Virus record (IMG/VR): IMGVR_UViG_3300031552_000004
Span: 1 to 64,000 of that record
From: a virus
Length of the DNA stretch: 64,000 bases
Reading direction: 5' to 3' (one strand)
Shown here: one piece after another, positions 10,394 through 56,116 of the stretch
Position numbering within the stretch: the first letter of the stretch is position 1
Layout: every line of letters starts with the position of its first letter
Position numbers and translations under genes: made by a program
The notes under the pieces: model-generated
Seen by the model: the letters and a program-made list of their open reading frames with translations, nothing else
What the model was told of the DNA's origin: nothing
The model's database searches: none

Positions 10394-11023
10394 CTACCCT
10401 GCCGCCGTGTCCATTCCTGGCGTCGAGTGCCAGCGTTCCTGCAAAAGCGCCTGGTCGTGTCGCCACCAGTCCGCGTGTGGCTCGTGCAACTCGTGAGCCA
10501 CGTAGACCGATGGCACCCACAATGATCGGGCGCGGTGTTCCTTTTCCATCCTGCGCTGCCAGTCCACGTCACTTGCATAGTGGACGTAGCTTTCATCCAT
10601 CAGCCCATACGCCAATGCTTCCTGTGTCACGTACAGGCAGAACCCGGCGAGATGGCCCACGATCTGCGGCTTGCGAATGTTGCCCCGCGTCCCGCTGTTC
10701 TGCGGCCAAGTCCGGCAGGGACCGGAAGGACCGACGAACCATGCGCGCATGTACTTCCATTCCTCCGCCGCATCTCGCAACGCTTTGAGCCATCCCGCAT
10801 CCGGTTCGCAGTCATCTACCAGGATTACAGCATCGCCACCAGCCACCAGTCGCAATCCCTCGTTGACCGTCTTGGTGAACCCTTGCCGCTTGTCGTCCTC
10901 CACCACGCAGATACCACAGTCGCAGCCCGCCACGTTCATTGCGTGGATGGCCGTAGCGTGGCCCTTGGCAAAGTCGAGCGTCGGGACGATGATGCTAGGT
11001 TTTGTATGGCATACAACATTCAC
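10394..11023 (-). CDS. Glycosyltransferase, GT-A fold (GT2-like)
   Basis: 209 residues. The N-terminus (PSIIVPTLD) and the acidic motif VEDDKRQGF followed by ILVDDCEPD fit a GT-A nucleotide-sugar-binding domain with a DxD-like metal site. Its start overlaps the end of the next glycosyltransferase gene. The palindrome TTGTATG-G-CATACAA (11002-11016) forms codons 3-7 of this gene, so a DNA-binding site and the reading frame coexist. It belongs to a three-gene sugar cassette inserted between tail terminator and tail tube. Acceptor unknown: virion protein or host glycan. Confidence 0.75.
   Translation of the reverse strand: MNVVCHTKPSIIVPTLDFAKGHATAIHAMNVAGCDCGICVVEDDKRQGFTKTVNEGLRLVAGGDAVILVDDCEPDAGWLKALRDAAEEWKYMRAWFVGPSGPCRTWPQNSGTRGNIRKPQIVGHLAGFCLYVTQEALAYGLMDESYVHYASDVDWQRRMEKEHRARSLWVPSVYVAHELHEPHADWWRHDQALLQERWHSTPGMDTAAG
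11002..11016. repeat. Palindrome TTGTATGGCATACAA (site 1 of 8)
   Basis: Lies in codons 3-7 of the GT2-like gene (start at 11023). Identical to sites 2, 5, 6 and 8. Confidence 0.75.
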
Positions 11024-11826
11024 AGCACGCTCTCCACCGCCGCCCAGAATTCATCGATCGGACCCTGGAAGCCCAGCCGTTCGGGTTCGTTCTCGATGTA
11101 CTCCATCGCACCGATTCGCCCGTCCACGATCAGTTCGCACCCCGCAGCCCACGCCTCCGCCACCGTCCTACCGAATGCTTCGGGCCATTGCGGAAAGAAC
11201 ACGAACGACTTGGCGTTTCCCATGATGGACGGCATGCGCTGGTAAGGCACTTCGCCCACCACACGGATGTATGGCGGCAGCTTCCCGAAATCCATCATCG
11301 GCGTGCCTATCAAGGCCAGCGTTTCACCCGTCCTGTATGCCCAGTCCACTGCCATCGGCGCGCCCTTGTAGACGTCTACCCGACCGACGAAGATCGCGCC
11401 CTCGCGTTCATCCTTCGGCTTAGCAGCTTGTCTGAAAGACTCCAGATTCACCGGCGGCGGAAGGATCACGTGCGGGGCGTCGAACGGGTAGCCGAAGGCA
11501 TCTACTTGCGCCTGACTCGAAAAGATCAACAACGTCGCTTGCTCCAACAGGCACCGTCTGAATAGGCCATCGCCCGCATACCACGGATCCCGTACGTGCT
11601 TTACCGTTGGCTTTTGCAGCAGGATCTCCAGCCATCGCTGATCGTACGTCGTGCTGTTCTGGACCACGTAGCACTCGATGTCATCTGGCGGGCGCTTGTT
11701 CGGTGGGCAATAGACGATCTTCGCCCAGTCCGGGGCGTGATCTACCAACGCTCCGCAGCTCATTTCACTTCCGCCGTGAATGCCTACGTCTGATTGGAGC
11801 CACCCTATACGCACCTTGTCTACCAT
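11020..11826 (-). CDS. Glycosyltransferase, GT-B fold (GT4-like)
   Basis: 268 residues from an ATG placed after a strong AAGGAGGAACG ribosome site; a longer start at 11853 is less likely. GT-B features: a short N-terminal half with GIHGGSEM, and the C-terminal UDP-sugar region GRVDVYKGAPMAVDW and WPEAFGRTVAEAWAAGCE, the E-x7-E-like pattern of GT4 enzymes. Shorter than the usual 350-400 residues, mainly in the acceptor domain. Overlaps both neighbours, so it is co-translated with them. Confidence 0.78.
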   Translation of the reverse strand: MVDKVRIGWLQSDVGIHGGSEMSCGALVDHAPDWAKIVYCPPNKRPPDDIECYVVQNSTTYDQRWLEILLQKPTVKHVRDPWYAGDGLFRRCLLEQATLLIFSSQAQVDAFGYPFDAPHVILPPPVNLESFRQAAKPKDEREGAIFVGRVDVYKGAPMAVDWAYRTGETLALIGTPMMDFGKLPPYIRVVGEVPYQRMPSIMGNAKSFVFFPQWPEAFGRTVAEAWAAGCELIVDGRIGAMEYIENEPERLGFQGPIDEFWAAVESVL

Positions 11827-11849
11827 CGTTCCTCCTTGATGTTGAGGAT

Positions 11850-13007
11850 TCACCAGAGCGTGGCCTCAATGTGAGCCACTATGGGTTTCCAGTACCGATT
11901 CCATACCACGTCATAATCGTAGTTCGCGGCGACGAACCCAAGGCCAGCTTCGCGCATCGACGCCTTTTTCTCGTCGTCCCAGGTGTACAGTTCTTCTAGC
12001 CCCTCTATGATGCGCCCGATGCTCGGAAGCTGCCACCAATACTCCAGGCCCGCAACCCAGAACGGTTGTAGCGGCTCGATCGCAATGCCGTTGACGCACA
12101 ATTCCGTGGTGGACGAGCACCGCTGCGTGAGCACCGGTATCCCGCACGCCTGCGCTTCCAACAACGGAAGGCAAAAGCCCTCGCCCATACTCGGCAAAGC
12201 CATCACGTCCGATGCCTGGTAAATCTTGGCAATCTGCTCGTCGCCCAATCCTATCGCCAAGTTGCCAGGAAGTGGGAATGCCATCGCATCTCCCGGCAGT
12301 TGCAGGGCGTTCATCAGCACGTCAAAGTAGATCCCTTGATCGCCGCTGCCATACGGTTGCTTGGTGGTGTGGCAGTAGAGCAGTGCCTCCGGGTGGATGT
12401 CATGAAACATCTTGAATGCCGCCAGCAGCTCAGGCCAGCCTTTCCTCGCCGGATAGCCCTTATTCGCAGCGACAATGGAGATGATGAAGCGATCCTGCGG
12501 CAACCCCACCTCCTGCTGTGCCTTCGCCTTGTCGCCGGGCTTGAACACGTTCAGATCCACGCCGTGCGGTGCGTACAGCGGATCGAAACCCGCATCCTTG
12601 AGCTGCGCTCGCCCGAACTGGCTATAGGCGATGATATAGTCCGCACCCCGCAGCCGGTCGCGTGCATACTTGTTGATCGGCGCCCCATCCACTGGGACCA
12701 TCGCCGCCCACGGCACTCCCACAAGCTGGCGCGTGTTCGGCGGTAGAGCCCACACGTCGTAGAGCGAGATGCACAAGTCCGCCTGAAAATGCTGATTGTA
12801 GGCGTTGATGCAGTCCGCATTCTGTCGTGCCTCGCGCAACCCGTAGTGCGGTATGCCATCCCATACTAGCGTTGCACCGGAAAGGCCAAAGTTGGCAATG
12901 ATCGCCACCTCGTGACCGTCACCACGCAAGCGTCGGGCAATCTGTCTCGCCTGTCCCGCGTATCCCGTCATGGTCCAGGCCGCATTCGTCCATAGAGTTA
13001 TTCGCAA
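11850..13007 (-). CDS. Glycosyltransferase family 4 (GT-B)
   Basis: 385 residues, full length for GT4. The N-terminal half has WTMTGYAGQARQIARRL, the glycine-containing acceptor loop. The C-terminal half has IVAANKGYPARKGWPELLAAF and GEGFCLPLLEAQACGIPV, the canonical E-x7-E donor motif. First gene of the 10.4-13.0 kb sugar cassette. It likely transfers a hexose to a polysaccharide or glycoprotein acceptor. Confidence 0.85.
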   Translation of the reverse strand: MRITLWTNAAWTMTGYAGQARQIARRLRGDGHEVAIIANFGLSGATLVWDGIPHYGLREARQNADCINAYNQHFQADLCISLYDVWALPPNTRQLVGVPWAAMVPVDGAPINKYARDRLRGADYIIAYSQFGRAQLKDAGFDPLYAPHGVDLNVFKPGDKAKAQQEVGLPQDRFIISIVAANKGYPARKGWPELLAAFKMFHDIHPEALLYCHTTKQPYGSGDQGIYFDVLMNALQLPGDAMAFPLPGNLAIGLGDEQIAKIYQASDVMALPSMGEGFCLPLLEAQACGIPVLTQRCSSTTELCVNGIAIEPLQPFWVAGLEYWWQLPSIGRIIEGLEELYTWDDEKKASMREAGLGFVAANYDYDVVWNRYWKPIVAHIEATLW

Positions 13008-14766: not shown

Positions 14767-15140
14767 GACGCCTCCACCCGTTCCAGGTCCACCCGCGTGT
14801 GCGACAGATTGCCGCCCACACCTCGCCGGATCAGGACCCGCGTCACTTCGTAGGTGCCCGCCGCAACACTGTTGCCGTCCGCGTCCTCGATGGTGCTCAA
14901 GCGATCCTCGGTGGTGACGTTGGCCGTCCCGTTCATCAGGGCAAAGTCTCGTTCCAAGACGACGAACCCGCTCGCCTCGTTGGCGAAGCCTTCCGTTGAC
15001 TGGGTGAAACGGCACGGCTGCGCCGTCGTCAGCGCCGACCACGACCGCGCAACTTCGCCCGTCGTATCTTGCGCCGTGCCCGAATCGCGCCATACGGTGC
15101 ATGTGTGGACGAGCCGCCGCGTCAGCCAGTGCCTAGTCAT
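14763..15140 (-). CDS. Putative head closure / head-tail joining protein
   Basis: 125 residues, beginning MTRHWLTRRLVHTCTVWRDS. The sequence is beta-rich, with FVVLERDFALMNGTANV and a C-terminal RVLIRRG strand, and its position between the connector adaptor and the gp10-like protein fits a head closure protein. The family is inferred mainly from gene order. Confidence 0.6.
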   Translation of the reverse strand: MTRHWLTRRLVHTCTVWRDSGTAQDTTGEVARSWSALTTAQPCRFTQSTEGFANEASGFVVLERDFALMNGTANVTTEDRLSTIEDADGNSVAAGTYEVTRVLIRRGVGGNLSHTRVDLERVEAS

Positions 15141-15555
15141 CTGGATCCACGTCGTAGTCGATGTCCTCGTGCGCCCAGACCTTGATCGATGCGGCTTTGA
15201 GCCCAGCTTTCGCCAGCAGGCCGGAACAGTCCAGTGCAAGCGCCTGCTGCCCGTAGGTCGTGGCGTTGAGGCCCATGTCCGTCTTGCCCCGGTAACGCAC
15301 AGATGCCTCACCCGCGATGCTCTCACTTTCAAGCTGTGGCTCGCGAGTCGTGGCGATAAAGTGCGCCGCCAGAAGCGCCTGGATGGATGCCAAAGCAGCA
15401 GAACCACCGCAGTTGCCCAGATTGGTCGCAAGCGGGATGGTGCGGTAGTACGCCATGTTGATGTAGGCGTTGATCTGCTCGTCCGTCAGGCCCGTATCGA
15501 GCACATCCTTCACGTCCTCGACGTCCACCAACGCGTTCTTGTTACGGACTGCCAT
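15133..15555 (-). CDS. Head-tail connector (adaptor) protein
   Basis: 140 residues, helical, with VEDVKDVLDTGLTDEQINAY followed by an Ala-rich helix (ALASIQALLAAHFIATT). This is the common form of gp6-like adaptor proteins, which have a ring of helices under the portal. It lies right after the capsid and PSBD-protein genes and overlaps the next gene. Confidence 0.7.
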   Translation of the reverse strand: MAVRNKNALVDVEDVKDVLDTGLTDEQINAYINMAYYRTIPLATNLGNCGGSAALASIQALLAAHFIATTREPQLESESIAGEASVRYRGKTDMGLNATTYGQQALALDCSGLLAKAGLKAASIKVWAHEDIDYDVDPDD

Positions 15556-15835
15556 CCACCGCCTCCACCACGTCCACCTTCAGGATGCGCCCGTCCTTGC
15601 CGGAACCTTGTATGGCATACAAATCTATGCCATGCTCCTTGGCAAGTTCGATCGCGCTAGCCGTGGCGTCCACGTCCTCCTCGATCTCCGGCTCTGGTTC
15701 CGGTTCTGGTCGTTCTTCGATGACGACGAACTTGTCACCGAATGCGGCCAGCTCGTCGGCAGTCACGTCGATCACATCGCCACCGACCAGGGACTCACGG
15801 TGGTGCATGCCGGGCCGAATTCGCACCCGAACCAT
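15542..15835 (-). CDS. Head-region protein with E2-type peripheral subunit-binding domain
   Basis: 97 residues. N-terminal 45 residues: MVRVRIRPGMHHRESLVGGD with a GDVIDVTADELAAFGDKF region seen in small phage head proteins. Then an acidic Pro-Glu linker (RPEPEPEPEIEED), then AIELAKEHGIDLYAIQGSG and KDGRILKVDVVEAV. The latter matches the 35-residue E3/E1-binding domain of 2-oxoacid dehydrogenase E2 chains (ALAKE-GIDL--I-GTG--GRI---DV). The palindrome at 15608-15622 encodes its DLYAI segment. Role in the virion unknown; perhaps a protein-docking module. Confidence 0.75.
   Translation of the reverse strand: MVRVRIRPGMHHRESLVGGDVIDVTADELAAFGDKFVVIEERPEPEPEPEIEEDVDATASAIELAKEHGIDLYAIQGSGKDGRILKVDVVEAVDGSP
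15608..15622. repeat. Palindrome TTGTATGGCATACAA (site 2 of 8)
   Basis: Inside the PSBD-domain gene, far from any start. Encodes part of the domain's core, so codon choice appears to be tuned to keep the site. Confidence 0.75.
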
Positions 15836-16861: not shown

Positions 16862-17344
16862 CTATACGATGCGCACGAGGCAGCGGGCGGCGGTTCCGCC
16901 GTTTGCGTTGACCGTCTGCCACGCGATGCCGATGGGGCAGGACGTGCCGACGCTCAGACCGGTCCCGCAGCTTTTCAGGTTCCCGTTTCCATCGGAAATC
17001 AGCCAGTGCTTGCCCTTCGTGACGCTCTGCCCGCTGGCGATCTTCATGTTCACGACGTCGCCCGGCAACCCCTGCATAAACTGCACGGTATCCCCGTCTG
17101 CGTAGGGGATGTCGATCGCCGCCGTGGTCGGGTACGTGTACGTGTCCGGTGCGGGGTTCACCAGCGAGATGAACTTGGCGGAAGCGCCGCTCGCCGTGGC
17201 GTGCTGATCCACCTGCGTCGCGGTCACCATGTAGAGCAACTGGCCGGGGTAGATGACTCCCGACCCTACCGCTTCCAGTCGTTGCGGGCTGATCCTCAAC
17301 GCGCTTTCGACGAGGATCGCATGCCGTGTCGTGGTACGTGCCAT
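16862..17344 (-). CDS. Putative capsid decoration / stabilising protein
   Basis: 160 residues, mostly beta, Gly/Thr-rich, with GSGVIYPGQLLYMVTATQV and a conserved-looking C-terminus (PIGIAWQTVNANGGTAARCL). The strand pattern resembles DUF2190/decoration-type proteins, which bind at capsid symmetry axes. The position between scaffold-protease and capsid protein supports this. Family assignment is tentative. Confidence 0.6.
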   Translation of the reverse strand: MARTTTRHAILVESALRISPQRLEAVGSGVIYPGQLLYMVTATQVDQHATASGASAKFISLVNPAPDTYTYPTTAAIDIPYADGDTVQFMQGLPGDVVNMKIASGQSVTKGKHWLISDGNGNLKSCGTGLSVGTSCPIGIAWQTVNANGGTAARCLVRIV

Positions 17345-18650: not shown

Positions 18651-18695
18651 ACAAAAACGCGCCATGTCGCGACCCGCAGGTCGTCACATGGCGCG
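18651..18695 (-). terminator. Leader hairpin with U tract before protease gene
   Basis: On the minus strand, CGCGCCATGT pairs perfectly with ACATGGCGCG (10 bp), extended by an inner 6-bp stem around a four-base loop, followed by GTTTTTGTT. This is a good intrinsic terminator. It lies downstream of a sigma70-like promoter and upstream of the protease ribosome site, so transcripts from that promoter must read through it. It may also end the upstream sugar-cassette transcript. Confidence 0.7.
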
Positions 18696-19466
18696 TAGGT
18701 CCGCCTCGTCCTTAACATCTAGTATACACCGGTTTTGTTGTATCGTCAAGTATTCTTTGACCCATGAGCGACTGCGGACGCCACTCCACAGATCGAACAG
18801 CGAGCCGACGTCCAACGCGACGCCGCCCATCTCCGCACACATCGTTGCGTACCACTTGCCAAGGAAGCCCGCACCCACCAGCGCCAACGTGCCGGGTCCA
18901 CAGTTGCCCGCAGCCTCCGCCGCGATCTGTTCGTGCATGGCCCAGTGTTCTGTCGGTCGCTCGCCGGTGTGTCCTTCCTCCGGCACGCGGACCCAATACG
19001 TTTTCTTGCCGTAGCGTGCCTCAAAGTCGTCTACTACGTTCCTGCACGTCACCAGCACAACGCGCTTCGCTTCCTGCACGATCTCGTCCAGCAATCCGTC
19101 TTGCCACAGGTAGATGTGCAGGTCGTTGTCGTTCGTCCACACGTCGTGCTCGCAGTGTTGCCCCATCCACGTTTCGGGATAGCGCCAGTAGCGATCCGTC
19201 TGCCCCTTCTTGTAGCACACCCCGTCTGCCTTGCCGATGGCATCCACAAGCAGGCGCCGCATCTTTGCGATGTCCCGCTCTGCAAAGTTGCCTCGTCCGA
19301 ACCAGTAGATCAGCCGCCTGATCATCTCCCCGCGCGTGATGTATTGGGGCCACATCAGCAACCGGCCCTCACCGTCGCCCAGGCGGATCAGCGACCCACG
19401 AATGCCGATGTCTAGACAGTCGATGGCCCATTCCGCGATTTCTACAGGTGAACGGGTGGTAATCAT
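18684..19466 (-). CDS. Glycosyltransferase-like, GT-D fold
   Basis: 260 residues from the ATG after AGGAGAGGTC. Near the N-terminus GSLIRLGDGEGRLL carries the D-x-E motif of GT-D enzymes (DUF1792 family). In the C-terminal half GNCGPGTLALVGAGFLGKWY resembles the family's second Rossmann segment. It is the last gene of the large sugar cassette, and its 3' end contains the promoter for the capsid block. Confidence 0.72.
   Translation of the reverse strand: MITTRSPVEIAEWAIDCLDIGIRGSLIRLGDGEGRLLMWPQYITRGEMIRRLIYWFGRGNFAERDIAKMRRLLVDAIGKADGVCYKKGQTDRYWRYPETWMGQHCEHDVWTNDNDLHIYLWQDGLLDEIVQEAKRVVLVTCRNVVDDFEARYGKKTYWVRVPEEGHTGERPTEHWAMHEQIAAEAAGNCGPGTLALVGAGFLGKWYATMCAEMGGVALDVGSLFDLWSGVRSRSWVKEYLTIQQNRCILDVKDEADLRAM
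18721..18749 (-). promoter_or_regulatory. Sigma70-like promoter for the capsid block
   Basis: On the minus strand TTGACG, a 17-base spacer and TATACT. Predicted start near 18714, about 20 bases before the terminator-like hairpin. It lies inside the 3' end of the GT-D gene, so it would give separate control of the capsid and tail genes. Confidence 0.7.
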
Positions 19467-19474
19467 GACCTCTC

Positions 19475-19741
19475 CTATGATGCTATTGTCACCGGTCCCC
19501 CATCTGCCCAAAGTCCACTATCGTTTCCCCATGTGATAGTCGTGTACGGTTGCGGTATTGGATCGCCAATATAGGGCTCGGGCCAATGCGGACATGGCGG
19601 ACGCCAGAAGTGCGGATCTGGATCTGTGGGTACTGTCACCGGCACAATCGGCCTTGCCTCAAGCCACGCGATCCGCGCCTCGGCGTCCGCCAGCTTGCGC
19701 TCCAGTTCCTCGATTCGTGCAAGTAGCTTCTTTTTCTTCAT
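19475..19741 (-). CDS. Small coiled-coil protein with Pro-rich tail
   Basis: 88 residues. Residues 2-30 form a strongly charged coiled coil (KKKKLLARIEELERKLADAE), followed by a Pro/Asp/His-rich tail (TDPDPHFWRPPCPHWPEP). GAGAGGAG ribosome site. No family recognised; perhaps an oligomerising structural or chaperone protein. Confidence 0.55.
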   Translation of the reverse strand: MKKKKLLARIEELERKLADAEARIAWLEARPIVPVTVPTDPDPHFWRPPCPHWPEPYIGDPIPQPYTTITWGNDSGLWADGGPVTIAS

Positions 19742-19786
19742 GGATTTCTCCTCTCAAACCAGCGGATCGAGCCCGCGCCTTCCAGT

Positions 19787-19882
19787 TCAGCCCAGCCCGT
19801 CATCGTTTACAGTAGGTAGTTTTCTGGCAATGATACTGGCCGCAGTTATACCCAGTCCCTTGAGAAATTTGCGCCTGTCCAT
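19787..19882 (-). CDS. 31-residue Tat-signal-like peptide
   Basis: Minus-strand ORF with an excellent ribosome site (AAAAGGAGTAGCGTAATG). The sequence begins MDRRKFLKGLGITAASIIA, which matches the twin-arginine signal pattern (RR-x-F-L-K plus a hydrophobic segment). It ends after only 31 codons. It could be a membrane-inserted micropeptide or the remnant of a longer Tat substrate. It sits between two sugar-cassette genes. Confidence 0.5.
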   Translation of the reverse strand: MDRRKFLKGLGITAASIIARKLPTVNDDGLG

Positions 19883-19886
19883 TACG

Positions 19887-25660: not shown

Positions 25661-25678
25661 GTCTCTCCTTTGGCGGCT

Positions 25679-26263
25679 TTAGTTCCGCCTCACGTGCGCG
25701 ATCGCCTCGTCCGTCACATCCACCCCCGCAAACGCCGCCAGCCTGCCCACTTCCCCGGCGGGATCTTCCAGCAGCGTTTCATAACTGACGTGCAGGACCG
25801 GATCTTGTATGCCATACAAACTTGAGAGCAGTCCCAGGTACGCCTCCACAGCCCAGGCCGTTGCTTCATCGCGATCATAGAACCGCCCCGGCGGGCACCG
25901 GCCCTCCATCCTGCCTCGCACGCTGCGCTCGAAGGTGCGATGAGAGACGACAACACGCGGTTCGTGGCCCATATCGCGCAGCATGTTCAGGGACCAGGGG
26001 AACGACTTCCACAATAACGTGTTTTTTGCGCCGAATGGCCCGTCACTTCGGAAGTGCGTCAAGGCATAACGCCTGAGCGCCATCCGCTGCTTCGGTTCCG
26101 GCAAACCGAAGATGCCGTGTAGGCAAGTGTCCTCGTACAGATCGAAACCCGCCGGGTGCGTGCTCAGGTGCAAGCCCATCGAAACGCCCATCTTGTGCAG
26201 GCATCCTGCCACGCACGAAGTCCCGCTTGCACCGATTCCAGTTACCAACATCACATTAGCCAT
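25679..26263 (-). CDS. Sulfotransferase-like P-loop protein
   Basis: 194 residues from the ATG at 26263. MLVTGIGASGTSCVAGCLHK is a 5'-PSB-like P-loop as in sulfotransferases. RVVVSHRTFERSV resembles the 3'-phosphate-binding strand and VSYETLLEDPAGEVGRLAAF is a typical family ending. It could transfer sulfate from PAPS to a glycan; kinase-like alternatives cannot be excluded. The palindrome at 25805-25819 is inside its coding sequence. Weak ribosome site. Confidence 0.65.
   Translation of the reverse strand: MANVMLVTGIGASGTSCVAGCLHKMGVSMGLHLSTHPAGFDLYEDTCLHGIFGLPEPKQRMALRRYALTHFRSDGPFGAKNTLLWKSFPWSLNMLRDMGHEPRVVVSHRTFERSVRGRMEGRCPPGRFYDRDEATAWAVEAYLGLLSSLYGIQDPVLHVSYETLLEDPAGEVGRLAAFAGVDVTDEAIAHVRRN
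25805..25819. repeat. Palindrome TTGTATGCCATACAA (site 3 of 8)
   Basis: Inside the sulfotransferase-like gene, about 130 bp before its end. The central base is C, i.e. opposite orientation to sites 1 and 2. Confidence 0.75.
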
Positions 26264-37890: not shown

Positions 37891-37905
37891 TTGTATGACA
37901 TACAA
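37891..37905. repeat. Palindrome TTGTATGACATACAA (site 4 of 8)
   Basis: Perfect 7-bp arms around a central base. It is in the leader of the leftward operon, about 90 bp downstream of the leftward -10 element. One of eight copies of TTGTATG-N-CATACAA in the window. Confidence 0.75.
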
Positions 37906-37918: not shown

Positions 37919-37952
37919 GTGGGGGACGGGGGACAGGAACCCCGTCCCCCAC
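37919..37952. repeat. Perfect 13-bp inverted repeat in divergent region
   Basis: GTGGGGGACGGGG and its exact complement, with an 8-base loop. In RNA from the leftward promoter it would form a very stable hairpin near the 5' end. No U tract follows on either strand, so RNA stability or a protein site is more likely than termination. Confidence 0.6.
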
Positions 37953-37992: not shown

Positions 37993-38021
37993 ATTGTACC
38001 ACGGAAAGACGGTCCCGTCAA
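37993..38021 (-). promoter_or_regulatory. Leftward promoter (PL-like)
   Basis: On the minus strand TTGACG, a 17-base spacer, TACAAT. It is back-to-back with the rightward promoter (11 bases between the -35 boxes) and would start the leftward operon at the ParB-like gene, with a leader of about 250 nt holding three hairpins and a palindromic site. Confidence 0.72.
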
Positions 38022-38032: not shown

Positions 38033-38061
38033 TTGACAAACCTTGGATTGTATGATACAAT
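38033..38061 (+). promoter_or_regulatory. Rightward promoter P1 (PR-like)
   Basis: TTGACA, 17 bases, TACAAT. The -10 region overlaps TTGTATGATACAA (38048-38060), a shorter relative of the palindrome found at eight other sites, so a repressor could cover it. Drives the gene at 38102. Confidence 0.8.
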
Positions 38062-38101
38062 GTAGTCGTAGCGAACAAACATTCAGACAGGAGATGATGA
38101 G

Positions 38102-39844: not shown

Positions 39845-39859
39845 TTGTATGGCATACAA
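39845..39859. repeat. Palindrome TTGTATGGCATACAA (site 5 of 8)
   Basis: Sits between the stop at 39842 and the ribosome site of the gene at 39874. Its position would let a bound protein block elongation or translation start. Confidence 0.75.
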
Positions 39860-40077: not shown

Positions 40078-40255
40078 GGCCGTAGAGGCGGCATGTTCCG
40101 TCCCCCGGTGGTTCGCCTATCGTGATCCCGAATTGGCTGCGTGGGGTTGGTATCCCGCCGACGAGCGGTTGGGTGCTGGCCGATGGGTCAAGCAACAGTG
40201 GATCGCCGAGACAGATGCCGGTCCGGTCGAAGAATTCGATGAAACTGCCTATTGA
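40046..40255 (+). CDS. Small hypothetical protein
   Basis: 69 residues, MRHIAYPTLAEAVEAACSVP with several Trp. Starts inside the preceding gene after an AGGAGGCATC site. The next promoter (P2) overlaps its stop region. Function unknown. Confidence 0.55.
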   Translation: MRHIAYPTLAEAVEAACSVPRWFAYRDPELAAWGWYPADERLGAGRWVKQQWIAETDAGPVEEFDETAY

Positions 40256-40280
40256 CAAGATCCTGTTTTCGTGATACAAT
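40252..40280 (+). promoter_or_regulatory. Rightward promoter P2
   Basis: TTGACA, 17 bases, TACAAT, within TATTGACAA...GTGATACAATGTA, the conserved form in this window. Drives the gene at 40323; leader about 35 nt, no strong hairpin. Confidence 0.8.
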
Positions 40281-40322
40281 GTAACTGTACCGAATGAAGG
40301 TTCACTAGACAGGAGACAGGAA

Positions 40323-42192: not shown

Positions 42193-42265
42193 CTGGGGTG
42201 CGGTCGTAGTCGGGCTGGTTCTGCTCGCCACGGTACTATTGATGGCAAGGATGGGGCTGCTGTGA
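42176..42265 (+). CDS. 29-residue membrane peptide
   Basis: GTG start after AAAGGAGCGCACAA. The sequence has a basic N-terminus (KTRANW) and a single hydrophobic helix (GAVVVGLVLLATVLLMA). The stop overlaps the GTG of the next gene. Could be a small holin-like or membrane regulator; too short for homology arguments. Confidence 0.42.
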   Translation: MKTRANWGAVVVGLVLLATVLLMARMGLL

Positions 42266-43083
42266 GCGAGCTTCGTGAATTGGAGCTGGGGGTAGAGCAA
42301 GTCATTGGTCACGCACTGGACTGGAAGCGCTCGAAGGACTTCGGCGGCGCGTCGTGGGCCGACACGGAACGAGGCTTTGTTTCCGTGATGGTGAACCCGC
42401 CGGACGGGCAGCCGCAGGTCGGCGGGGACTTTGAGAACGGCTTGGTGCCGGTGTTGCAGGAACCCGCAGCAGTCGCCCGCCAGTACGTCGAACGGACGCG
42501 GACGGGACTGCGCGTGCTGGCAGACGCACCGATGCCCCTGGAGCTCTACGGCATGGTCTGTGAGGCGCTGGGCCGCCAGGAGGAAAGCCGCCAGTTGTTC
42601 ATCGGTGACCTGATCCTGTATGGCGAGCAACACTATGGCGAAACGTACGCGCAGTATGTCGATCTGCTGGGGAACAGTTACAACACGCTTGCGCAGTGGA
42701 AGCACGTTGCATCGAGGTTCCCGTATGAATCGCGGATCGAAGGCGTGCCGTTCACCGTCTACCAGATCACCGCGTCCATCGAACCACTAGAAGCACGCCT
42801 GGAGCTCGTCCGCCGCTACATGGCGGGAGAGTTGGAAGACACGACGGAAGTCAGCGACGAGGTGAAACGGGAACGATCGGAGGAGCCGGATGCGGAGCTG
42901 CTGCCGGCCTGCCCGGCATGTGGCGGCAAGTTGACGTCGCGAAAGTGCAAAGAATGCGGCCTGGACTTCGCATCGGTGATATGGTTGTTGCATGACGTGA
43001 TCGCCGAATTGTCCGCGATCCAGGTGCCGGATACGGAGATGCCGACGGTGTGGCGTCTCACACATAGCCAGGAGGAGCCATGA
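42262..43083 (+). CDS. DNA-binding-like protein with zinc ribbon
   Basis: 273 residues (GTG start). LGNSYNTLAQWKHVASRFPY is a phage-typical HTH-like region similar to KorB/ParB-type helices. C-terminal CPACGGKLTSRKCKECG is a zinc ribbon. A regulator or partition-like protein is possible; candidate binder of the palindromic sites, by guess only. Overlaps both neighbours. Confidence 0.6.
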   Translation: MSELRELELGVEQVIGHALDWKRSKDFGGASWADTERGFVSVMVNPPDGQPQVGGDFENGLVPVLQEPAAVARQYVERTRTGLRVLADAPMPLELYGMVCEALGRQEESRQLFIGDLILYGEQHYGETYAQYVDLLGNSYNTLAQWKHVASRFPYESRIEGVPFTVYQITASIEPLEARLELVRRYMAGELEDTTEVSDEVKRERSEEPDAELLPACPACGGKLTSRKCKECGLDFASVIWLLHDVIAELSAIQVPDTEMPTVWRLTHSQEEP

Positions 43084-43815: not shown

Positions 43816-43978
43816 TAGGCTACAGATGTGGATCTGGCATGCATTTGCGGCGCATTGCAAACAGCGCCACAATGCCGAGTTCGAGGTATGCCGCAACCCA
43901 CGCTGTCGTCGGGCGGCGTTCGTAGAGCGAGTATTGTACCGGTGGCTCTATGAGTGGCTGGATGTGGAGGGACGATGA
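43805..43978 (+). CDS. Small Trp/Cys-rich protein
   Basis: 57 residues, MIRDRLQMWIWHAFAAHCKQ, with CRNPRCRRAAF (C-x4-C) and an amphipathic C-terminal helix. GAGGGAGGAACAG ribosome site. Function unknown. Confidence 0.5.
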   Translation: MIRDRLQMWIWHAFAAHCKQRHNAEFEVCRNPRCRRAAFVERVLYRWLYEWLDVEGR

Positions 43979-44262
43979 TCCGCCACCTGATGAGCACATT
44001 TGAAGCACGGCGTTACCTGGCCCAACAGCACGGCATCACGCGATCATGCAGGCAGATACAGAAATGGCTGAGAACAGGCCGCGTTCTTCCCGTGACGACG
44101 ATACAGGACGGGCGTGGGTTCGTCCGGCTCACCACGGCAGGGCAGATCGACGCCGCAGTCGATGCGGGACTTGTGCCACCCAGGGGCGGAAAGGAACTTC
44201 CCGACCGGCAGGTCATGGTGCATCTCATGGACGAGTTCGGCGGGACGCTCGCGGAAGACTGA
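43975..44262 (+). CDS. MerR/excisionase-like DNA-binding protein
   Basis: 95 residues starting MIRHLMSTFEARRYLAQQHG. ITRSCRQIQKWLRTGRVLPV is a winged HTH with recognition helix as in excisionases, and GRGFVRLTTAGQIDAAV the wing. ATGA overlap. May regulate early genes. Confidence 0.65.
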   Translation: MIRHLMSTFEARRYLAQQHGITRSCRQIQKWLRTGRVLPVTTIQDGRGFVRLTTAGQIDAAVDAGLVPPRGGKELPDRQVMVHLMDEFGGTLAED

Positions 44263-44271
44263 GAGGAGATT

Positions 44272-44286
44272 TTGTATGGCATACAA
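44272..44286. repeat. Palindrome TTGTATGGCATACAA (site 6 of 8)
   Basis: The start codon of the downstream gene (ATG at 44276) lies within the palindrome, and its ribosome site abuts it. A bound protein would directly hide translation-initiation DNA/RNA. Confidence 0.78.
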
Positions 44287-46982: not shown

Positions 46983-47298
46983 ACAGCGCATTGAGGATCT
47001 CATTCAAGTAGCGACTTCGTGCGGCTATTGGGAGGGCCAGCGCAAGGATGGTAGCACACAGCATCTAGAAGCGCTTGAGCGCAGAGGTTGGCTAACAAAA
47101 CTTGTATGGCAGGCCATTGATCATCGCATCGCCGAAGCCGTCGCCGCCGAGCGGAAGGCATGCGCGACTCTTGAACCAGAACCGTTGCGCATTGGCGGCA
47201 CTGATGCGGAACCCGAATATGGTACATACGATGAGGTGTTTCTCTTGGGCTGGGAGGCTTATCGCTCCGCCATCCGCGCCAGAGGAGACAGGGAATGA
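46966..47298 (+). CDS. Hypothetical protein
   Basis: 110 residues, MDGVIEQRIEDLIQVATSCG, helical with an acidic middle. Overlaps both neighbours. Unknown. Confidence 0.52.
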   Translation: MDGVIEQRIEDLIQVATSCGYWEGQRKDGSTQHLEALERRGWLTKLVWQAIDHRIAEAVAAERKACATLEPEPLRIGGTDAEPEYGTYDEVFLLGWEAYRSAIRARGDRE

Positions 47299-48494
47299 GC
47301 AATCACAGGGGACTTGACGACTACTACATTCAATTCGAGCGCACCAGGGACAGGGCGGGCAGGAAGGCGGTGGCGATCCTGCTGACAGGGGGCGCATTGC
47401 TGACCGCGATCATCGCTACCGTGCTGCTGTGCGCGCGCGCCTTGGCGCAGGACGGGTACGAGCCCGGCGTCATCGCCGTGCGCAGCGACGCCGGACGCTG
47501 GGAGTTACTGCGCGTCGCACCGGGAACGGAGGAGGCGCACCTCGTCGCGTTGGCATCGGCTGGGCGCGAGACGACCAGGCTGGCTATCGCTTACCCGTTT
47601 GATTCTCCGATCTTCCTTCCGGCGATAGTCAGAGATTGGGATGGTCAGCCACCGCCGCGTTTGTTGCCGAGCGATCCTGAGTACAGTAGGCAATGGGCGA
47701 TACACACGGAATACGTCAATGTTCCGTTACAGCCAGCCGAGCCGCCGGGAGCGATCATTGCCGACCTGGACACCGGGCTGCAATCGATGATCGATCCTCC
47801 CGCACATATCGTAGGAACCTATAACGCCATGACCGGCGGGGATAACGTTTCCACGTCGTTGCCCCACGGGACGCACGTTGTTTCCATCCTCGCGGCCCCG
47901 CACAATGACATTGCCACCGCAGGCGTCTGTCCGCAATGCGGCATTCTGGCGGTCAAGGTTTGTCGTGACGAGGAAGCAGGAGCCTGTTACGAAACGGACA
48001 TCGTGGCAGGCTTGGAATGGTCCGTCCAGAACGGTGCTCAGATAGCCCTATTGGAGATGGGCACACAGTCGCCCATGCCCTATCTGGCGCAGGCCATTGG
48101 GGATGCGCTGGATGCAGGCGTCGTGGTCGTTGTACCTCGCGGTAATGCAGGCAATACCTTACCACAGTATCCGGCGTGCGTCGAGAACGTGCTGGCGATA
48201 AGTGCGCTACATCCCAACTACGAGCTTGTGAGTGGCGGGTCGTGGTCGAGCAGTTGGGGCGGGGACACGATGGCCTTCGCCGCACCGGGGGTGAATGTCC
48301 TGACGGAGAAGGGCTACTTCAACGGGACATCTGCTGCGGCCCCACACGTTGCCGGCGCGTTCGGGGTGGTGCTGAGCGAGCACCCCGGATGGACGGGCCA
48401 GGATGCCTACGACTGGCTCGTGGTGCACGCGCTCGACCTGGGCGAATCGGGATGGGATGATCGCTACGGCTGGGGAATGGTTCTACTTCCATGA
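47295..48494 (+). CDS. Secreted subtilase (S8 family peptidase)
   Basis: 399 residues. Membrane/signal helix at 25-50 (VAILLTGGALLTAIIATVLL). Catalytic triad: Asp159 (IIADLDTGL), His191 (LPHGTHVVSI), Ser346 (FNGTSAAAPHVAG), with oxyanion Asn284 (PRGNAG). All positions intact. CPQC and two more Cys may form disulfides. ATGA overlap. Exported serine proteases are unusual in phage early regions; it could act on host surface proteins. Confidence 0.85.
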   Translation: MSNHRGLDDYYIQFERTRDRAGRKAVAILLTGGALLTAIIATVLLCARALAQDGYEPGVIAVRSDAGRWELLRVAPGTEEAHLVALASAGRETTRLAIAYPFDSPIFLPAIVRDWDGQPPPRLLPSDPEYSRQWAIHTEYVNVPLQPAEPPGAIIADLDTGLQSMIDPPAHIVGTYNAMTGGDNVSTSLPHGTHVVSILAAPHNDIATAGVCPQCGILAVKVCRDEEAGACYETDIVAGLEWSVQNGAQIALLEMGTQSPMPYLAQAIGDALDAGVVVVVPRGNAGNTLPQYPACVENVLAISALHPNYELVSGGSWSSSWGGDTMAFAAPGVNVLTEKGYFNGTSAAAPHVAGAFGVVLSEHPGWTGQDAYDWLVVHALDLGESGWDDRYGWGMVLLP

Positions 48495-48646: not shown

Positions 48647-48675
48647 TTGACAACCGATGCCATCCATGATACAAT
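48647..48675 (+). promoter_or_regulatory. Rightward promoter P3 (TIGR-Tas cassette)
   Basis: TTGACA, 17 bases, TACAAT in the conserved context GATACAATGTA. Predicted start near 48682, at the first base of a structured leader. It would transcribe leader, 184-residue gene, array 1, Tas-like gene and array 2. Confidence 0.8.
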
Positions 48676-49388: not shown

Positions 49389-49679
49389 CCACCAAGGCGG
49401 TGAAACCCAGCGGCGAAGTGCGAGCCAGGTATGCGGTGAAACCCAAGCGCCGCGTGCGAGCCATGGCCGGTGTTCAACCCAACGGAAAAGTGCGAGCCAT
49501 GTATGTTGTGAAACCCATGCTCCAAGTGCGAGCCAGCGTCGTCATGAAACCCATCTTCCAGGTGCGAGCCAGAGGCGCGGTGAAACCCAATAAGATCGTG
49601 CGAGCCAGAGGCGCGGTGAAACCCAATGAGATCATGCGAGCCACACGGCATGTGAAACCCAAGGAATGGATGCAAAAGG
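49382..49679 (+). repeat. TIGR-like array 1 (36-nt period, dual repeats)
   Basis: Alternating 10-nt repeats: A, RTGAAACCCA, begins at 49400, 49436, 49472, 49508, 49544, 49580, 49616, 49652; B, RTGCGAGCCA, at 49418, 49454, 49490, 49526, 49562, 49598, 49634, plus a degenerate last copy at 49670 and a partial first copy (ATAGCCA) at 49385. Spacing is exactly 18 nt throughout. Spacers (8 nt) after A: gcggcgaa, agcgccgc, acggaaaa, tgctccaa, tcttccag, ataagatc, atgagatc, aggaatgg; after B: ccaaggcg (partial B), ggtatgcg, tggccggt, tgtatgtt, gcgtcgtc, gaggcgcg, gaggcgcg, cacggcat. Reading frames through it are by-products of the 36-nt period. Confidence 0.9.
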
Positions 49680-49688: not shown

Positions 49689-50489
49689 ATGACAGACCAA
49701 CGACCGGATCCCAAGCCACGGAAACTGGCACGACTGTGGCAGTCCTACCTATGGTGGGACGAACTGAATCAACTCTGGCAGAAACACGACAAGCGCCGCC
49801 AGTCTGCCGAGGCCGGCAAGTCGAACTATGACGCCCAGTTCGAGCAGGACATGATCGAGCTCACCCACCTGGAAGAGTTCATGGAAATCGCTCGCAAGGA
49901 CATGGTGAAATACGGCACGACCGCCGGCCCGATCTGGGACTGGGTGACATCCGTCAAGGGCTGCGGTGCGGGCGGAGACGCTGCCAAGCTGCTGGCGCAG
50001 ATCGACGACATCACCAAGTTCGACACCATCTCCAAGTTGTGGCGGTTCGCAGGCTGGGCGGTGATAGACGGTGAGATCGACAAGCCGCGACGGGGCGAGA
50101 AACTGTCCTACAATCGCACGCTCAAGTCGATCTGCTGGCGCATCGCAGACCAGTTCGTGAGACAACGCACGCCCGTCTATCGCGACGAGTACGATCGCTA
50201 TCGGGAAGAGGACCGCCGCAACCATCCAAACGTCATCTGCCAGAAGTGCGGCACCCTGTTCGATCCAGAGATCAAGCGTTGCCCAGGCTGCAAGGCCAAG
50301 AACACGAGCTACAATCTGCTGTACTGCAATGCACACATGGACGCCAGGGCCAGGCGCAAGATCGCCAAGCTGTTTCTGGCACATCTGTGGCTGAAATGGA
50401 GGGAACTGGAAGGCTTGCCGACGAGCGATCCCTATGTGGAGGCGATACTGGGCCACACGCACATTGTCCCGGTGCCAGAGTTTTCATAG
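49689..50489 (+). CDS. Tas-like protein: IS110 C-terminal/Nop-like domain, zinc ribbon
   Basis: 266 residues. Residues 10-85 are helical/coiled-coil (LTHLEEFMEIARKDMVKYG). Residues 86-165 match the C-terminal domain of IS110-type transposases (Transposase_20), which is related to Nop domains: VKGCGAGGDAAKLLAQIDD, then TKFDTISKLWRFAGW, then LSYNRTLKSICWRIADQFVR. A zinc ribbon (C184, C187, C198, C201) is inserted, then the family's last helices return (IAKLFLAHLWLKWRELEG). No DEDD/RuvC or HNH nuclease is present. Flanked by the two arrays; its stop TAG begins array 2. Known Tas proteins are Nop-domain RNA-binding proteins that use TIGR guide RNAs; a nuclease-less form would bind rather than cut DNA. 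Confidence 0.85.
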   Translation: MTDQRPDPKPRKLARLWQSYLWWDELNQLWQKHDKRRQSAEAGKSNYDAQFEQDMIELTHLEEFMEIARKDMVKYGTTAGPIWDWVTSVKGCGAGGDAAKLLAQIDDITKFDTISKLWRFAGWAVIDGEIDKPRRGEKLSYNRTLKSICWRIADQFVRQRTPVYRDEYDRYREEDRRNHPNVICQKCGTLFDPEIKRCPGCKAKNTSYNLLYCNAHMDARARRKIAKLFLAHLWLKWRELEGLPTSDPYVEAILGHTHIVPVPEFS

Positions 50490-50636
50490 CCAGTGACGTT
50501 GTGAAACCCAGCGTCCAGATGCGAGCCAGCACGTTCGTGAAACCCATGTCCTACGTGCGAGCCAAGGCCCAAGTGAAACCCAGCTGCGAGGTGCGAGCCA
50601 AGGCGGATGTGAAACCCATTCATCGCGTGCGCATCC
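50483..50636 (+). repeat. TIGR-like array 2
   Basis: Same repeats and period as array 1. A repeats at 50501, 50537, 50573, 50609; B repeats at 50519, 50555, 50591, degenerate last copy at 50627, partial first copy (CATAGCCA) at 50485 containing the tas stop. Spacers after A: gcgtccag, tgtcctac, gctgcgag, ttcatcgc; after B: gtgacgtt (partial B), gcacgttc, aggcccaa, aggcggat. No spacer is shared with array 1. Confidence 0.88.
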
Positions 50637-50653: not shown

Positions 50654-50682
50654 TTGACAACCATCACGATTCGTGATACAAT
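50654..50682 (+). promoter_or_regulatory. Rightward promoter P4
   Basis: TTGACA, 17 bases, TACAAT, in GTGATACAATGTA context, immediately after array 2. Predicted start near 50689, opening leader RNA 2. Confidence 0.8.
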
Positions 50683-51463: not shown

Positions 51464-51670
51464 ATGATCACGAAATGGGAACTGCGTGCGGTTGACGATG
51501 ATAGCGCCGAGCTGATTCTGTGGGATAGCTTTCGCGGATGCGATACCTTCATTCGCCTGGATGGGCGTTCCGCAAAGGCGACGGTGCGCGATTGTAAGGG
51601 TGAACGCGAGATACAGGATCTCGTCATGTTCCTGAACGACTTTGCCCAAGTATGCGAGATGGAGGAGTGA
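51464..51670 (+). CDS. Hypothetical protein
   Basis: 68 residues, MITKWELRAVDDDSAELILW, AGGAGCAGGAG site. Beta-hairpin character (GCDTFIRLDGRSAKATVRDC). Unknown. Confidence 0.52.
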   Translation: MITKWELRAVDDDSAELILWDSFRGCDTFIRLDGRSAKATVRDCKGEREIQDLVMFLNDFAQVCEMEE

Positions 51671-54381: not shown

Positions 54382-55170
54382 ATGAGATTCGGCAGCCTGT
54401 TCGCGGGGATCGGTGGGTTTGATCTCGGATTGGAACGTAGCGGCATGGAGTGCGCGTGGCAGGTGGAGATTGACCCTTGGTGCCGCCAGGTGCTCGCCAA
54501 GCACTGGCCGGACGTGCCTAGATATGAGGATGTGCGAGATGTCGGACGACGAAACCTTGAGCCAGTTGACCTTATTTGCGGTGGCTTCCCCTGCCAAGAC
54601 ATCAGCAACGCGGGCAACCGAGCAGGCATCGAAGGTGATCGGTCGGGACTCTGGACAGAATACGCCCGCATCATTCGCGAGCTACGACCCCAATACATCA
54701 TCGTGGAGAACGTCGCAGCTCTCCTTGTTCGGGGGATGGGAACAGTTCTCGGAGACTTGGCCGCGTGCGGGTATGATGCGGAATGGCAAGTGCTATCAGC
54801 AGCAGCCTTTGGTGCCCCGCATATCAGGGAGAGGATCTTCATATTGGCCTACGCCGAGGGCGGTGCAACCGCCAAGAGGAAAGAATGCACAGGGCGGGCC
54901 ATCGTTGACGGATGTAGTGAGAATGTATCCTACGCCGAGGGCCAACAGTGGCGTCAGTCGAAAGCCGGGAACAGGCGGAAAGTGCTTACAGGAAGAATTG
55001 CGGAGAGTGGACTGCACCAATACTGGGCATCCCAACCCGGAGTTTGTCGAGTGGTTGATGGGCTTCCCGGTAGGCTGGACAGAAACACAGGACTAGGCAA
55101 CGCTGTGTTGCCCCAGGTCGCTGAGTGGCTTGGCCGGAGGATTGTGGAGGTAGAAGGAGCACAGAGATGA
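54382..55170 (+). CDS. DNA (cytosine-5) methyltransferase, second copy
   Basis: 262 residues from the ATG after GGAGAGACA. Motif I SLFAGIGGFDLGLERSG, motif IV CGGFPCQDIS, motif VI YIIVENVAALL, motif VIII APHIRERIFILAYA and motif X LGNAVLPQVAEWLGRRI are intact. The target recognition region is short. A second frame (54539-55096) is also open and coherent over most of this gene. Overlaps the primase gene by ATGA. Confidence 0.9.
   Translation: MRFGSLFAGIGGFDLGLERSGMECAWQVEIDPWCRQVLAKHWPDVPRYEDVRDVGRRNLEPVDLICGGFPCQDISNAGNRAGIEGDRSGLWTEYARIIRELRPQYIIVENVAALLVRGMGTVLGDLAACGYDAEWQVLSAAAFGAPHIRERIFILAYAEGGATAKRKECTGRAIVDGCSENVSYAEGQQWRQSKAGNRRKVLTGRIAESGLHQYWASQPGVCRVVDGLPGRLDRNTGLGNAVLPQVAEWLGRRIVEVEGAQR
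54539..55096 (+). CDS. Overlapping +1-frame ORF within methyltransferase gene
   Basis: An open frame of 185 codons, starting MSDDETLSQLTLF, shifted relative to the methyltransferase. It reads ASPAKTSATRATEQAS, SSWRTSQLSLFGGWEQFSET, WPRAGMMRNGKCY and ends NPEFVEWLMGFPVGWTE. I remember very similar sequences from separate phage proteins annotated near cytosine methyltransferases. It may be a real overprinted gene or just the second frame of conserved methyltransferase DNA. A weak GAGG sits upstream. Translation is unproven. Confidence 0.35.
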   Translation: MSDDETLSQLTLFAVASPAKTSATRATEQASKVIGRDSGQNTPASFASYDPNTSSWRTSQLSLFGGWEQFSETWPRAGMMRNGKCYQQQPLVPRISGRGSSYWPTPRAVQPPRGKNAQGGPSLTDVVRMYPTPRANSGVSRKPGTGGKCLQEELRRVDCTNTGHPNPEFVEWLMGFPVGWTETQD

Positions 55171-56099
55171 AACTGACAGGGATAGAGGAAGCCGTGGCGA
55201 TCGCCGAGCGGCGTTGGCCGGGGTTCCGATTCGACATCGTTGGCGACGAGGCGCACGGGCCATGCCCGGTATGTGGCAAGGCGACGGAAGACGGGTTCGT
55301 GATTTTCAGCGATGGAGGATTTTTCTGTCGACCTGGTGCTCACACCGGATGGCTAGACGATGACACCGTGCAGCTCACCAAGGAGGAGATCCGGCTCCGC
55401 AAGATCGAGGCTGAGCAGCGACGTCAGGCACGCAAGCAGCGGGAACTTGAAGAACGCCTGACTGCGCTCGAATGGATGGCCCAGTGCCAGGACCACCTGG
55501 CCTACAACAAGACGATGGACGATGCCGACCGCGCATACTGGCACGGCGAGGGCATCCTGCCGGAGAACGTAGACAAGTTCATGCTGGGCGTGTGCTATGC
55601 TTGCCCGACGGACAAGGACCACCGCCCGTCCTACACTATCCCCGTCTGGCGGCGCGATGGCAAGACGCTTTGGAACATCGTCCACCGCCTCGTCGGAGAG
55701 ACATCGAATAAGTACCGCCCACACCGCGCCGGCCTGGGCAAGCAGCTCGTCCGAGCCCACGCTATCGGCCCGGAAGTCGTGCTCGTCGAGGGTGCAAAGA
55801 AGGCGCTGATCTGCTCACAATACGGATTCAACGCCGTGGGCCTGCAGGGCTGCCGGGGGACATTCCCCGGTGAGTGGGTGAAGTGGATGGCAGACACGCG
55901 GCGGCTGTGGGTAGCATTCGATCCCGACGCCAACGGGCACGCATTGCGACTTGGGCACGGACTGGCGAAGGCGCTGCCGAGATGCGAGGTGCGGGTATGC
56001 GCATTCCCCGTCAAGCCCGACGATCTGTTCGCCAAGCACGGCGGAGGCACAGAGGACTTTGGGACGTTGCTCGCGCTGGGGCAACTTGTGAAGGGATGA
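55167..56099 (+). CDS. DnaG-like primase (zinc finger plus TOPRIM)
   Basis: 310 residues. N-terminal zinc domain: GPCPVCGKATEDGFVIFSDG then FFC. A basic coiled coil follows (EIRLRKIEAEQRRQARKQRE). TOPRIM: EVVLVEGAKKALICSQYGFN with the catalytic Glu, then WVAFDPDANGH with the D-x-D. Synthesises RNA primers with the adjacent helicase. ATGA overlap with the methyltransferase gene. Confidence 0.85.
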   Translation: MKLTGIEEAVAIAERRWPGFRFDIVGDEAHGPCPVCGKATEDGFVIFSDGGFFCRPGAHTGWLDDDTVQLTKEEIRLRKIEAEQRRQARKQRELEERLTALEWMAQCQDHLAYNKTMDDADRAYWHGEGILPENVDKFMLGVCYACPTDKDHRPSYTIPVWRRDGKTLWNIVHRLVGETSNKYRPHRAGLGKQLVRAHAIGPEVVLVEGAKKALICSQYGFNAVGLQGCRGTFPGEWVKWMADTRRLWVAFDPDANGHALRLGHGLAKALPRCEVRVCAFPVKPDDLFAKHGGGTEDFGTLLALGQLVKG

Positions 56100-56101
56100 T
56101 T

Positions 56102-56116
56102 TTGTATGGCATACAA
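56102..56116. repeat. Palindrome TTGTATGGCATACAA (site 8 of 8)
   Basis: Begins three bases after the primase stop; contains the ATG of the next gene (56106). Same geometry as site 6. Confidence 0.78.

What the first reader, a model, noticed from the sequence alone, without database searches (positions are those of the whole stretch)
11002..56116. Eight copies of the palindrome TTGTATG-N-CATACAA across both halves of the genome
Perfect 7-bp arms at 11002, 15608, 25805, 37891, 39845, 44272, 51422 and 56102. Chance expectation in 64 kb for 14 fixed bases is far below one. Rightward sites lie in gene gaps or over start codons (44276, 56106); leftward sites are mostly inside genes, far from starts. 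This resembles stoperators of some actinophages, or partition (parS-like) sites, rather than simple operators.
Basis: partly seen in the sequence, partly recalled or inferred. Interest (0 to 1): 0.78.

Follow-up and report, generated by a model that had tools for sequence, protein, structure and literature searches.

The report
Scattered palindromic control sites in phage
A bacterial virus carries nine identical 15-letter mirror-image DNA sites spread round its genome, several sitting exactly where genes begin, most likely docking points for one of its own regulator proteins that shuts genes off in many places at once; the idea is known from a few other viruses, but these sites are unusually uniform and were not found described before.

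Summary
In detail: eight perfect TTGTATGNCATACAA sites, none expected by chance. A ninth lies at 64680 in the rest of the 67,339-bp phage record. The sites score 29-33 bits; nothing else in the genome exceeds 3.

A syntenic relative, G028, has five copies of TTTGTATNNNATACAAA. Two are at orthologous places, one over the start codon of the same gene. Sixteen terminase relatives have none; 400 genomes of the presumed host phylum, Chloroflexota, hold five singletons.

Both phages also share a set of strong sigma70-type promoters. The main divergent promoter of each carries the same half-site as a tighter palindrome over its -10 box. All five right-arm sites lie at gene starts downstream of these promoters.

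Best reading: dispersed operators of a phage-encoded dimeric regulator that works like a repressor-stoperator system. Candidate binders are an LmbU-domain protein (42262) and a LexA-like winged-helix protein (43080). The sites are not L5-type stoperators (symmetric, not oriented), and no integrase or ParA was found. Binding and roadblocking are inferred. The partition reading is weakly supported.

The parts
11002..11016 (.). 15-bp palindrome, just inside the called start of a leftward glycosyltransferase-like gene (10394-11023)
15608..15622 (.). 15-bp palindrome, inside 15542-15835(-), centre 60 bp upstream of the start of 15133-15555(-)
25805..25819 (.). 15-bp palindrome, inside 25679-26263(-), centre 152 bp upstream of the next start
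37891..37905 (.). 15-bp palindrome between the divergent promoters and the left arm, about 80-95 bp downstream of the estimated start of leftward transcription
   Evidence: absent at this place in G028
39845..39859 (.). 15-bp palindrome directly before the ribosome-binding site of 39874-40077; orthologous to G028 19490
44272..44286 (.). 15-bp palindrome over the start codon (44276) of 44276-45049; orthologous to G028 29261, also over the start codon
51422..51436 (.). 15-bp palindrome 35 bp (centre) upstream of 51464-51670
56102..56116 (.). 15-bp palindrome over the start codon (56106) of 56106-56381
38047..38061 (.). ATTGTAT-G-ATACAAT: same half-site, centre 2 bp shorter, over the spacer and -10 box of the main rightward promoter; identical in G028 (17176-17190)
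38033..38061 (+). main rightward promoter TTGACA-17-TACAAT with TG extension
   Evidence: conserved in G028 17162
37993..38021 (-). divergent leftward promoter TTGACG-17-TACAAT
   Evidence: conserved in G028 17147
40252..40280 (+). promoter of the block that holds both candidate regulators
   Evidence: counterpart G028 22459
48647..48675 (+). promoter of the same type
50654..50682 (+). promoter of the same type
56359..56387 (+). promoter of the same type
60384..60412 (+). promoter of the same type
38073..38084 (+). leader element GAAYRAANNTTC at a fixed place after the -10 box
40292..40303 (+). leader element GAAYRAANNTTC at a fixed place after the -10 box
42262..43083 (+). candidate binder A: protein with LmbU-family regulator domain and zinc ribbon; 74% identical in G028, 28 of 29 residues identical at the helix-turn-helix
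43080..43316 (+). candidate binder B: 78-aa LexA-type winged helix without peptidase domain; 71% identical over the aligned part in G028
43975..44262 (+). third, weak candidate: excisionase/MerR-like small protein, 46% identical in G028

Best explanation
The nine 15-bp palindromes are binding sites of one phage-encoded, symmetric (dimeric) DNA-binding regulator. The tighter palindrome over the -10 box of the main divergent promoter is probably its promoter operator. When bound, the regulator would block initiation at the main rightward promoter. At the dispersed sites, which lie in leaders, over start codons or inside operons downstream of the phage's promoters, it would block passing RNA polymerase. 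That silences many transcription units at once, as in repressor-stoperator phages. Sites 39845 and 44272 bracket the block (40046-44262) that encodes both candidate regulators under its own promoter at 40252, so this block could stay on while its neighbours are off. Shown here: the sites, their uniformity, their conservation in one relative, their placement, and the promoters (as sequence matches). Inferred: binding, the identity of the binder (LmbU-domain protein 42262 slightly ahead of LexA-like 43080), shared binding of the N1 and N3 spacings, roadblocking, and any role in lysogeny.
For: Nine perfect sites with no degraded copies. The same motif occurs five times in syntenic phage G028, at orthologous places for 39845 and 44272; at 44272 the 15-bp site differs only at its free centre base while the gene product is 33% identical. 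Right-arm sites at gene starts: 5 of 5 against 15% expected (p 8e-5, window chosen after looking); G028 4 of 4 right-arm sites, with its left-arm site outside. A conserved promoter set, 7 rightward plus 1 leftward here and 4 plus 1 in G028, and the half-site palindrome over the -10 box of the main promoter in both phages. The most conserved shared regulators lie between two orthologous sites. Not a host repeat.
Against: No binding data. The promoter palindrome has a 1-bp centre and the dispersed sites a 3-bp centre, which one rigid dimer would not normally tolerate. No integrase (PF00589, PF00239) was found, so lysogeny is not supported. Three left-arm sites lie inside genes; G028's left-arm site is not at a start by the same test. 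37891 has no counterpart in G028. Terminase-level relatives lack any such repeated palindrome. Only two genomes carry the system, so conservation rests on one comparison. The model of the LmbU-type protein was too poor to use (pLDDT 37).
Confidence: 0.52

Rival explanations
1. Ordinary local operators: the regulator binds at leaders and start codons and controls only the adjacent gene (by occluding a nearby promoter, activating it, or hindering translation start), with no roadblock of elongation.
For: All right-arm sites touch or precede a gene start; two sites lie over start codons with the same phase, encoding MAYK, and MSYK in G028.
Against: No promoter of the phage's own type sits next to the dispersed sites; the nearest upstream ones are 0.2 to 6.8 kb away. 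Left-arm sites lie inside genes.
Confidence: 0.22
2. Partition or genome-organising sites (parS-like, or KorB-like sites that combine partition and repression).
For: Odd-centred 15-bp palindromes dispersed over both arms; a ParB-type domain protein is encoded at 37243.
Against: No ParA of family PF13614 (other ParA-type families not tested). The 37243 protein matches a ParB-like N domain also found in methyltransferases. 42262 is LmbU-like rather than ParB. Sites sit at gene starts and are not clustered at one centromere.
Confidence: 0.11
3. Recognition sites for another DNA transaction (replication, packaging, recombination, modification by the two C5 methyltransferases).
For: Sites are dispersed over the entire circle; two C5 methyltransferases are present.
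Against: Placement at starts of transcribed genes and the match with the promoter half-site are unexplained; the palindrome has no fixed CG.
Confidence: 0.07
4. Operators of a host regulator used by the phage.
For: Host regulators are commonly exploited by phages (general knowledge).
Against: The motif occurs only as five singletons in 400 Chloroflexota genomes, so no regulon is visible; two MAGs with related terminases have none.
Confidence: 0.04
5. RNA hairpins acting in the leaders of mRNAs.
For: The 6-bp stem with a 3-nt loop is possible and is part of the lowest-energy fold in about half of the eight sites.
Against: It is absent from the best fold of the others, z-scores are ordinary (+0.9 to -2.0), and some sites sit inside genes.
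Confidence: 0.03

Closest known systems
Repressor-stoperator system of cluster A mycobacteriophages (L5, Bxb1, TipsytheTRex)
   Same: Many copies of one site through the genome, in gene gaps or over gene ends, plus an operator at the main early promoter; related phages keep related sites (passages of PMC6550527; PMC9283540).
   Different: L5 sites are 13-bp, asymmetric, oriented with transcription, 20-30 per genome, and bound by a monomer. Here: 15-bp symmetric, nine per genome, invariant, and the promoter site has different spacing. No integrase or ParA found.
Streptomyces phage R4 repressor-stoperator system and its relatives
   Same: Eight or more dispersed sites in intergenic regions, repressor encoded near the early region (passage of PMC10276819).
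   Different: Repressor family and site sequence were not compared; those phages encode serine integrases, none found here.
phiC31 conserved inverted repeats bound by its repressor
   Same: Recalled from memory only: dispersed symmetric sites bound by a phage repressor.
   Different: Not checked; two paper searches gave no paper on it.
Stoperator-like repeats of lytic phages T1 and Stevie
   Same: Dispersed, mainly intergenic repeats in phages without evident lysogeny; role unknown (passage of PMC4319613).
   Different: 22-bp and asymmetric, 16-20 copies.
LmbU-family regulators
   Same: 42262 shares the helix-turn-helix domain (NF038070, E 4e-8). LmbU binds a palindrome and can dimerise (passages of PMC6510168).
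   Different: Score far below the family cut-off (33 vs 125 bits); LmbU activates antibiotic genes at CGCCGGCG.

Membership tests
Repressor-stoperator system (L5 type) | many copies of one site across the phage genome | tested here: met
   nine perfect copies
Repressor-stoperator system (L5 type) | sites asymmetric and oriented with transcription | tested here: not met
   all sites are perfect palindromes
Repressor-stoperator system (L5 type) | sites in short intergenic gaps or over gene ends | tested here: inconclusive
   6 of 9 are not wholly inside a gene; 3 left-arm sites are
Repressor-stoperator system (L5 type) | same site also at the main early promoter | tested here: inconclusive
   same half-site over the -10 box, but a 1-bp instead of 3-bp centre
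Repressor-stoperator system (L5 type) | repressor binds the sites and stops elongation | not testable with these tools
   needs binding and transcription assays
Repressor-stoperator system (L5 type) | temperate phage with integrase or parABS | tested here: not met
   no PF00589, PF00239 or PF13614 match in G000 or G028; G000 reads as a closed circle
ParABS / KorB-type partition system | ParA-type ATPase | tested here: not met
   no PF13614 match; other ParA families not tested
ParABS / KorB-type partition system | ParB with site-binding helix-turn-helix | tested here: inconclusive
   37243 has only a ParB-like N domain by PHROG; 42262 is LmbU-like
LmbU-family transcriptional regulator (42262) | score above the NCBIfam cut-off | tested here: not met
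   33.3 bits against 125; only residues 91-177 match
LexA (43080) | N-terminal winged-helix DNA-binding domain | tested here: met
   Pfam E 4.7e-5, just under the cut-off (23.5 vs 23.7 bits); best fold match is LexA-DNA 3jso, TM 0.73
LexA (43080) | C-terminal self-cleaving peptidase domain | tested here: not met
   the protein ends after 78 residues

The most novel reading that the evidence does not exclude
A dimeric LmbU-domain phage protein, or a peptidase-less LexA, acts as a genome-wide transcription roadblock at nine invariant symmetric sites in a lytic, integrase-less phage. It would read the same half-site at two spacings to separate promoter shut-off from elongation block, giving a palindromic stoperator system used to time gene expression rather than to keep lysogeny.
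Probability: 0.2. Interest if true: 0.72.

Novelty: new variant of a known kind. Interest (0 to 1): 0.5.

Why it matters
If true, genome-wide silencing by dispersed roadblock sites is not confined to actinobacteriophages and asymmetric sites, and may serve phages that do not integrate. The sharp gap between true sites (29-33 bits) and everything else (below 3 in this genome), with two conserved candidate binders of known DNA-binding type, makes the question directly testable with one gel shift. It would also give a biochemical role to an LmbU-type domain in phages.

Tried and rejected
Terminase relatives (16 contigs) were expected to show the motif. None does, even as TTGTATNNNATACAA, and those read in full show no other repeated palindrome of this kind.

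Apart from G028 none of their records has more than one copy. A complete scan with TTTGTATGNCATACAAA gave 35 stretches. On the looser pattern TTGTATNNNATACAA, G028 has five, three long records (G020, G058, G066; 145-223 kb) have two, and the rest checked have one.

A third LexA-like relative (G056, 41% identity) has no such sites and is not an orthologue in context, so it could not tell the binder. Searches for 42262 relatives found only G028 in viral contigs, none in genome contigs or phage records, and three distant LmbU-type domains in 400 Chloroflexota genomes.

AlphaFold of 42262 was too poor to search with. The RNA hairpin idea was weakened by folding. The helicase query found nothing. 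Paper searches: the motif string 0 papers; phiC31 inverted repeats nothing usable; LexA motif of Chloroflexota nothing direct.
Full report
Observation. The eight sites are exactly where stated, and the shuffled expectation is zero. Allowing three mismatches adds one poor match. The window belongs to a 67,339-bp virus record with a ninth perfect site at 64680. A minus-strand frame of 556 codons runs through the record's ends. Leftward genes continue from position 1 into 65025-67289, so the record reads as a complete circle with divergent promoters at 38.0 kb and convergent ends near 65.0 kb (the last step is inference). A weight matrix from the 14 sites of two phages scores the sites 29-33 bits. 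The next best places score 2.6 (this phage) and 4.8 (relative), while five shuffles reach 2.0-5.5. There are thus no weak copies.

Relatives. Terminase relatives at 31-63% identity (16 contigs) have 0 copies. One other record stands out: G028 (IMGVR_UViG_3300031578_000172, 35,886 bp) with five copies of TTTGTATNNNATACAAA, three of them exact TTGTATGNCATACAA. G028 is a syntenic relative. My caller gives 14 gene pairs by BLASTP, six of them between 40046 and 44262 here; 42262 (74%) and 43080 (71%) are the most similar pairs with long alignments. Site 39845 matches G028 19490, directly behind a conserved gene end. Site 44272 matches 29261, both over the start codon of the same gene, whose product is only 33% identical. 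G028 sites 11208, 21023 and 26099 have no counterpart here, and 37891 has none in G028. So positions turn over while the motif stays.

Host and background. Terminase relatives at 59% and 55% lie in Chloroflexota MAGs, so the host is probably of that phylum (inference; two weaker hits were in Chlorobiota and Acidobacteria MAGs). Of 400 genomes of that phylum, 5 hold one copy each of TTTGTATNNNATACAAA, about what 14 fixed bases would give in roughly 1.4 Gb (my estimate). It is not a host repeat.

Promoters. Both phages carry near-identical strong promoters TTGACA-17-TACAAT with a TG extension: seven rightward and one leftward here, four and one in G028. At the main divergent promoter of both phages, and only there, the spacer and -10 box form ATTGTAT-G-ATACAAT. 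That is the half-site of the dispersed palindromes with a centre two bases shorter. Three promoters in each phage have GAAYRAANNTTC at a fixed place 10-12 bp after the -10 box. These are all the copies of that pattern in each genome. It resembles GAAC-N4-GTTC, the LexA motif of Gram-positives (background passage of PMC3323433). This suggests a second regulator acting at promoters.

Placement. The five right-arm sites all lie between 65 bp upstream and 8 bp downstream of a gene start, where 15% of positions do (p 8e-5; limits chosen after looking). In G028 four of four right-arm sites do, and its left-arm site does not. Of three left-arm sites inside operons here, one does. The sites lie 0.2-6.8 kb downstream of the nearest promoter of the phage type, so they are not promoter operators in the ordinary sense. 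Site 37891 lies some 80-95 bp into the leftward transcript (start estimated).

Who binds. Three small regulators are shared. 42262 has an LmbU-type domain (residues 91-177, E 4e-8, well under the curated cut-off); its helix-turn-helix stretch is 28 of 29 identical between the phages against 207 of 273 overall. LmbU itself binds a palindrome through its HTH and can dimerise (passages of PMC6510168). 43080 is a LexA-type winged helix without peptidase; its model (pLDDT 78) is nearest to LexA bound to DNA (3jso), and residues 38-50, the helix of the model, are 10 of 13 identical. 43975 is weakly excisionase-like. Identical sites with an identical reading helix slightly favour 42262, but this is a lean, not a result.

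Mechanism. The simplest account is a symmetric phage regulator that shuts the main promoter and blocks polymerase at dispersed sites. It works like a repressor-stoperator system. Sites 39845 and 44272 bracket the block with both regulators under promoter 40252, as expected if that block stays on when neighbours are silenced (inference; in G028 one further site, 26099, lies between the two regulator genes, which the simple form of this idea does not predict). It is not a member of the L5 type: those sites are asymmetric, oriented and bound by a monomer. Lysogeny is not supported: no tyrosine or serine recombinase and no ParA of the families tested. Stoperator-like repeats without known role exist in lytic phages T1 and Stevie. 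The difference in spacing between promoter site and dispersed sites is the main weakness; two binders with related half-sites would explain it too.

Partition. Dispersed odd palindromes recall KorB sites (recalled, no call), but ParA is not found, the ParB-like gene at 37243 matches a domain also found in methyltransferases, and placement follows gene starts. I give this 0.11.

Novelty. No paper in the held library contains the motif string. Dispersed phage repressor sites are known, so this is a new variant of a known kind, in a phage group with no near match among the named phage records (terminase at most 38.5%).

Noticed in passing
49401-49661 and 50502-50618, around gene 49689-50489(+): Alternating 9-mers TGAAACCCA / TGCGAGCCA in an exact 18-bp period with unique 9-bp spacers (15 and 7 units) flank a gene matching phrog_4285 'transposase' and weakly Pfam Transposase_20. 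The repeat pattern matches 33 viral stretches exactly; 23 of these 33 also hold a homologue of the gene, against 0 of 117 control loci, and Microcystis phage Mvi-JY20 has gene and array. It fits the published TIGR-Tas systems (36-nt tandem-spacer guide RNAs with a Nop/IS110-like protein; outline and abstract of PMC12045711 seen), apparently a Tas protein without nuclease domain.
   Followed up: partly
38033, 40252, 48647, 50654, 56359, 60384 (+), 38021 (-); 64447 outside the window: A family of near-identical strong promoters TTGACAA-N-TGATACAAT shared with G028; TGATACAAT occurs 8 times on the + strand and never on the other.
   Followed up: yes
38073-38084, 40292-40303; 64487 outside the window: GAAYRAANNTTC at a fixed place 10-12 bp after the -10 box of three promoters in each of two phages, like a Gram-positive SOS box; possibly the operator of the LexA-like protein or of host LexA.
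   Followed up: partly
37919-37952: Strong GC-rich inverted repeat GTGGGGGACGGGG...CCCCGTCCCCCAC between the leftward promoter and the left arm, conserved in G028; role unknown, perhaps an attenuator.
   Followed up: no
37243-37734, 36227-37255, 54382-55170: ParB-like N-domain protein next to a C5 methyltransferase in the late operon, and a second C5 methyltransferase in the early region.
   Followed up: no
18684-26263 (-): Large block of apparent glycosyltransferase, radical-SAM-like, methyltransferase and dehydrogenase-like genes inside the structural operon; judged by eye from the translations.
   Followed up: no
47295-48494; 56699-57172; 41252-41737: Subtilase-type protease, a protein with a ribosome modulation factor-like segment (RMF, E 3e-6), and a RuvC-like resolvase in the early region.
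   Followed up: no
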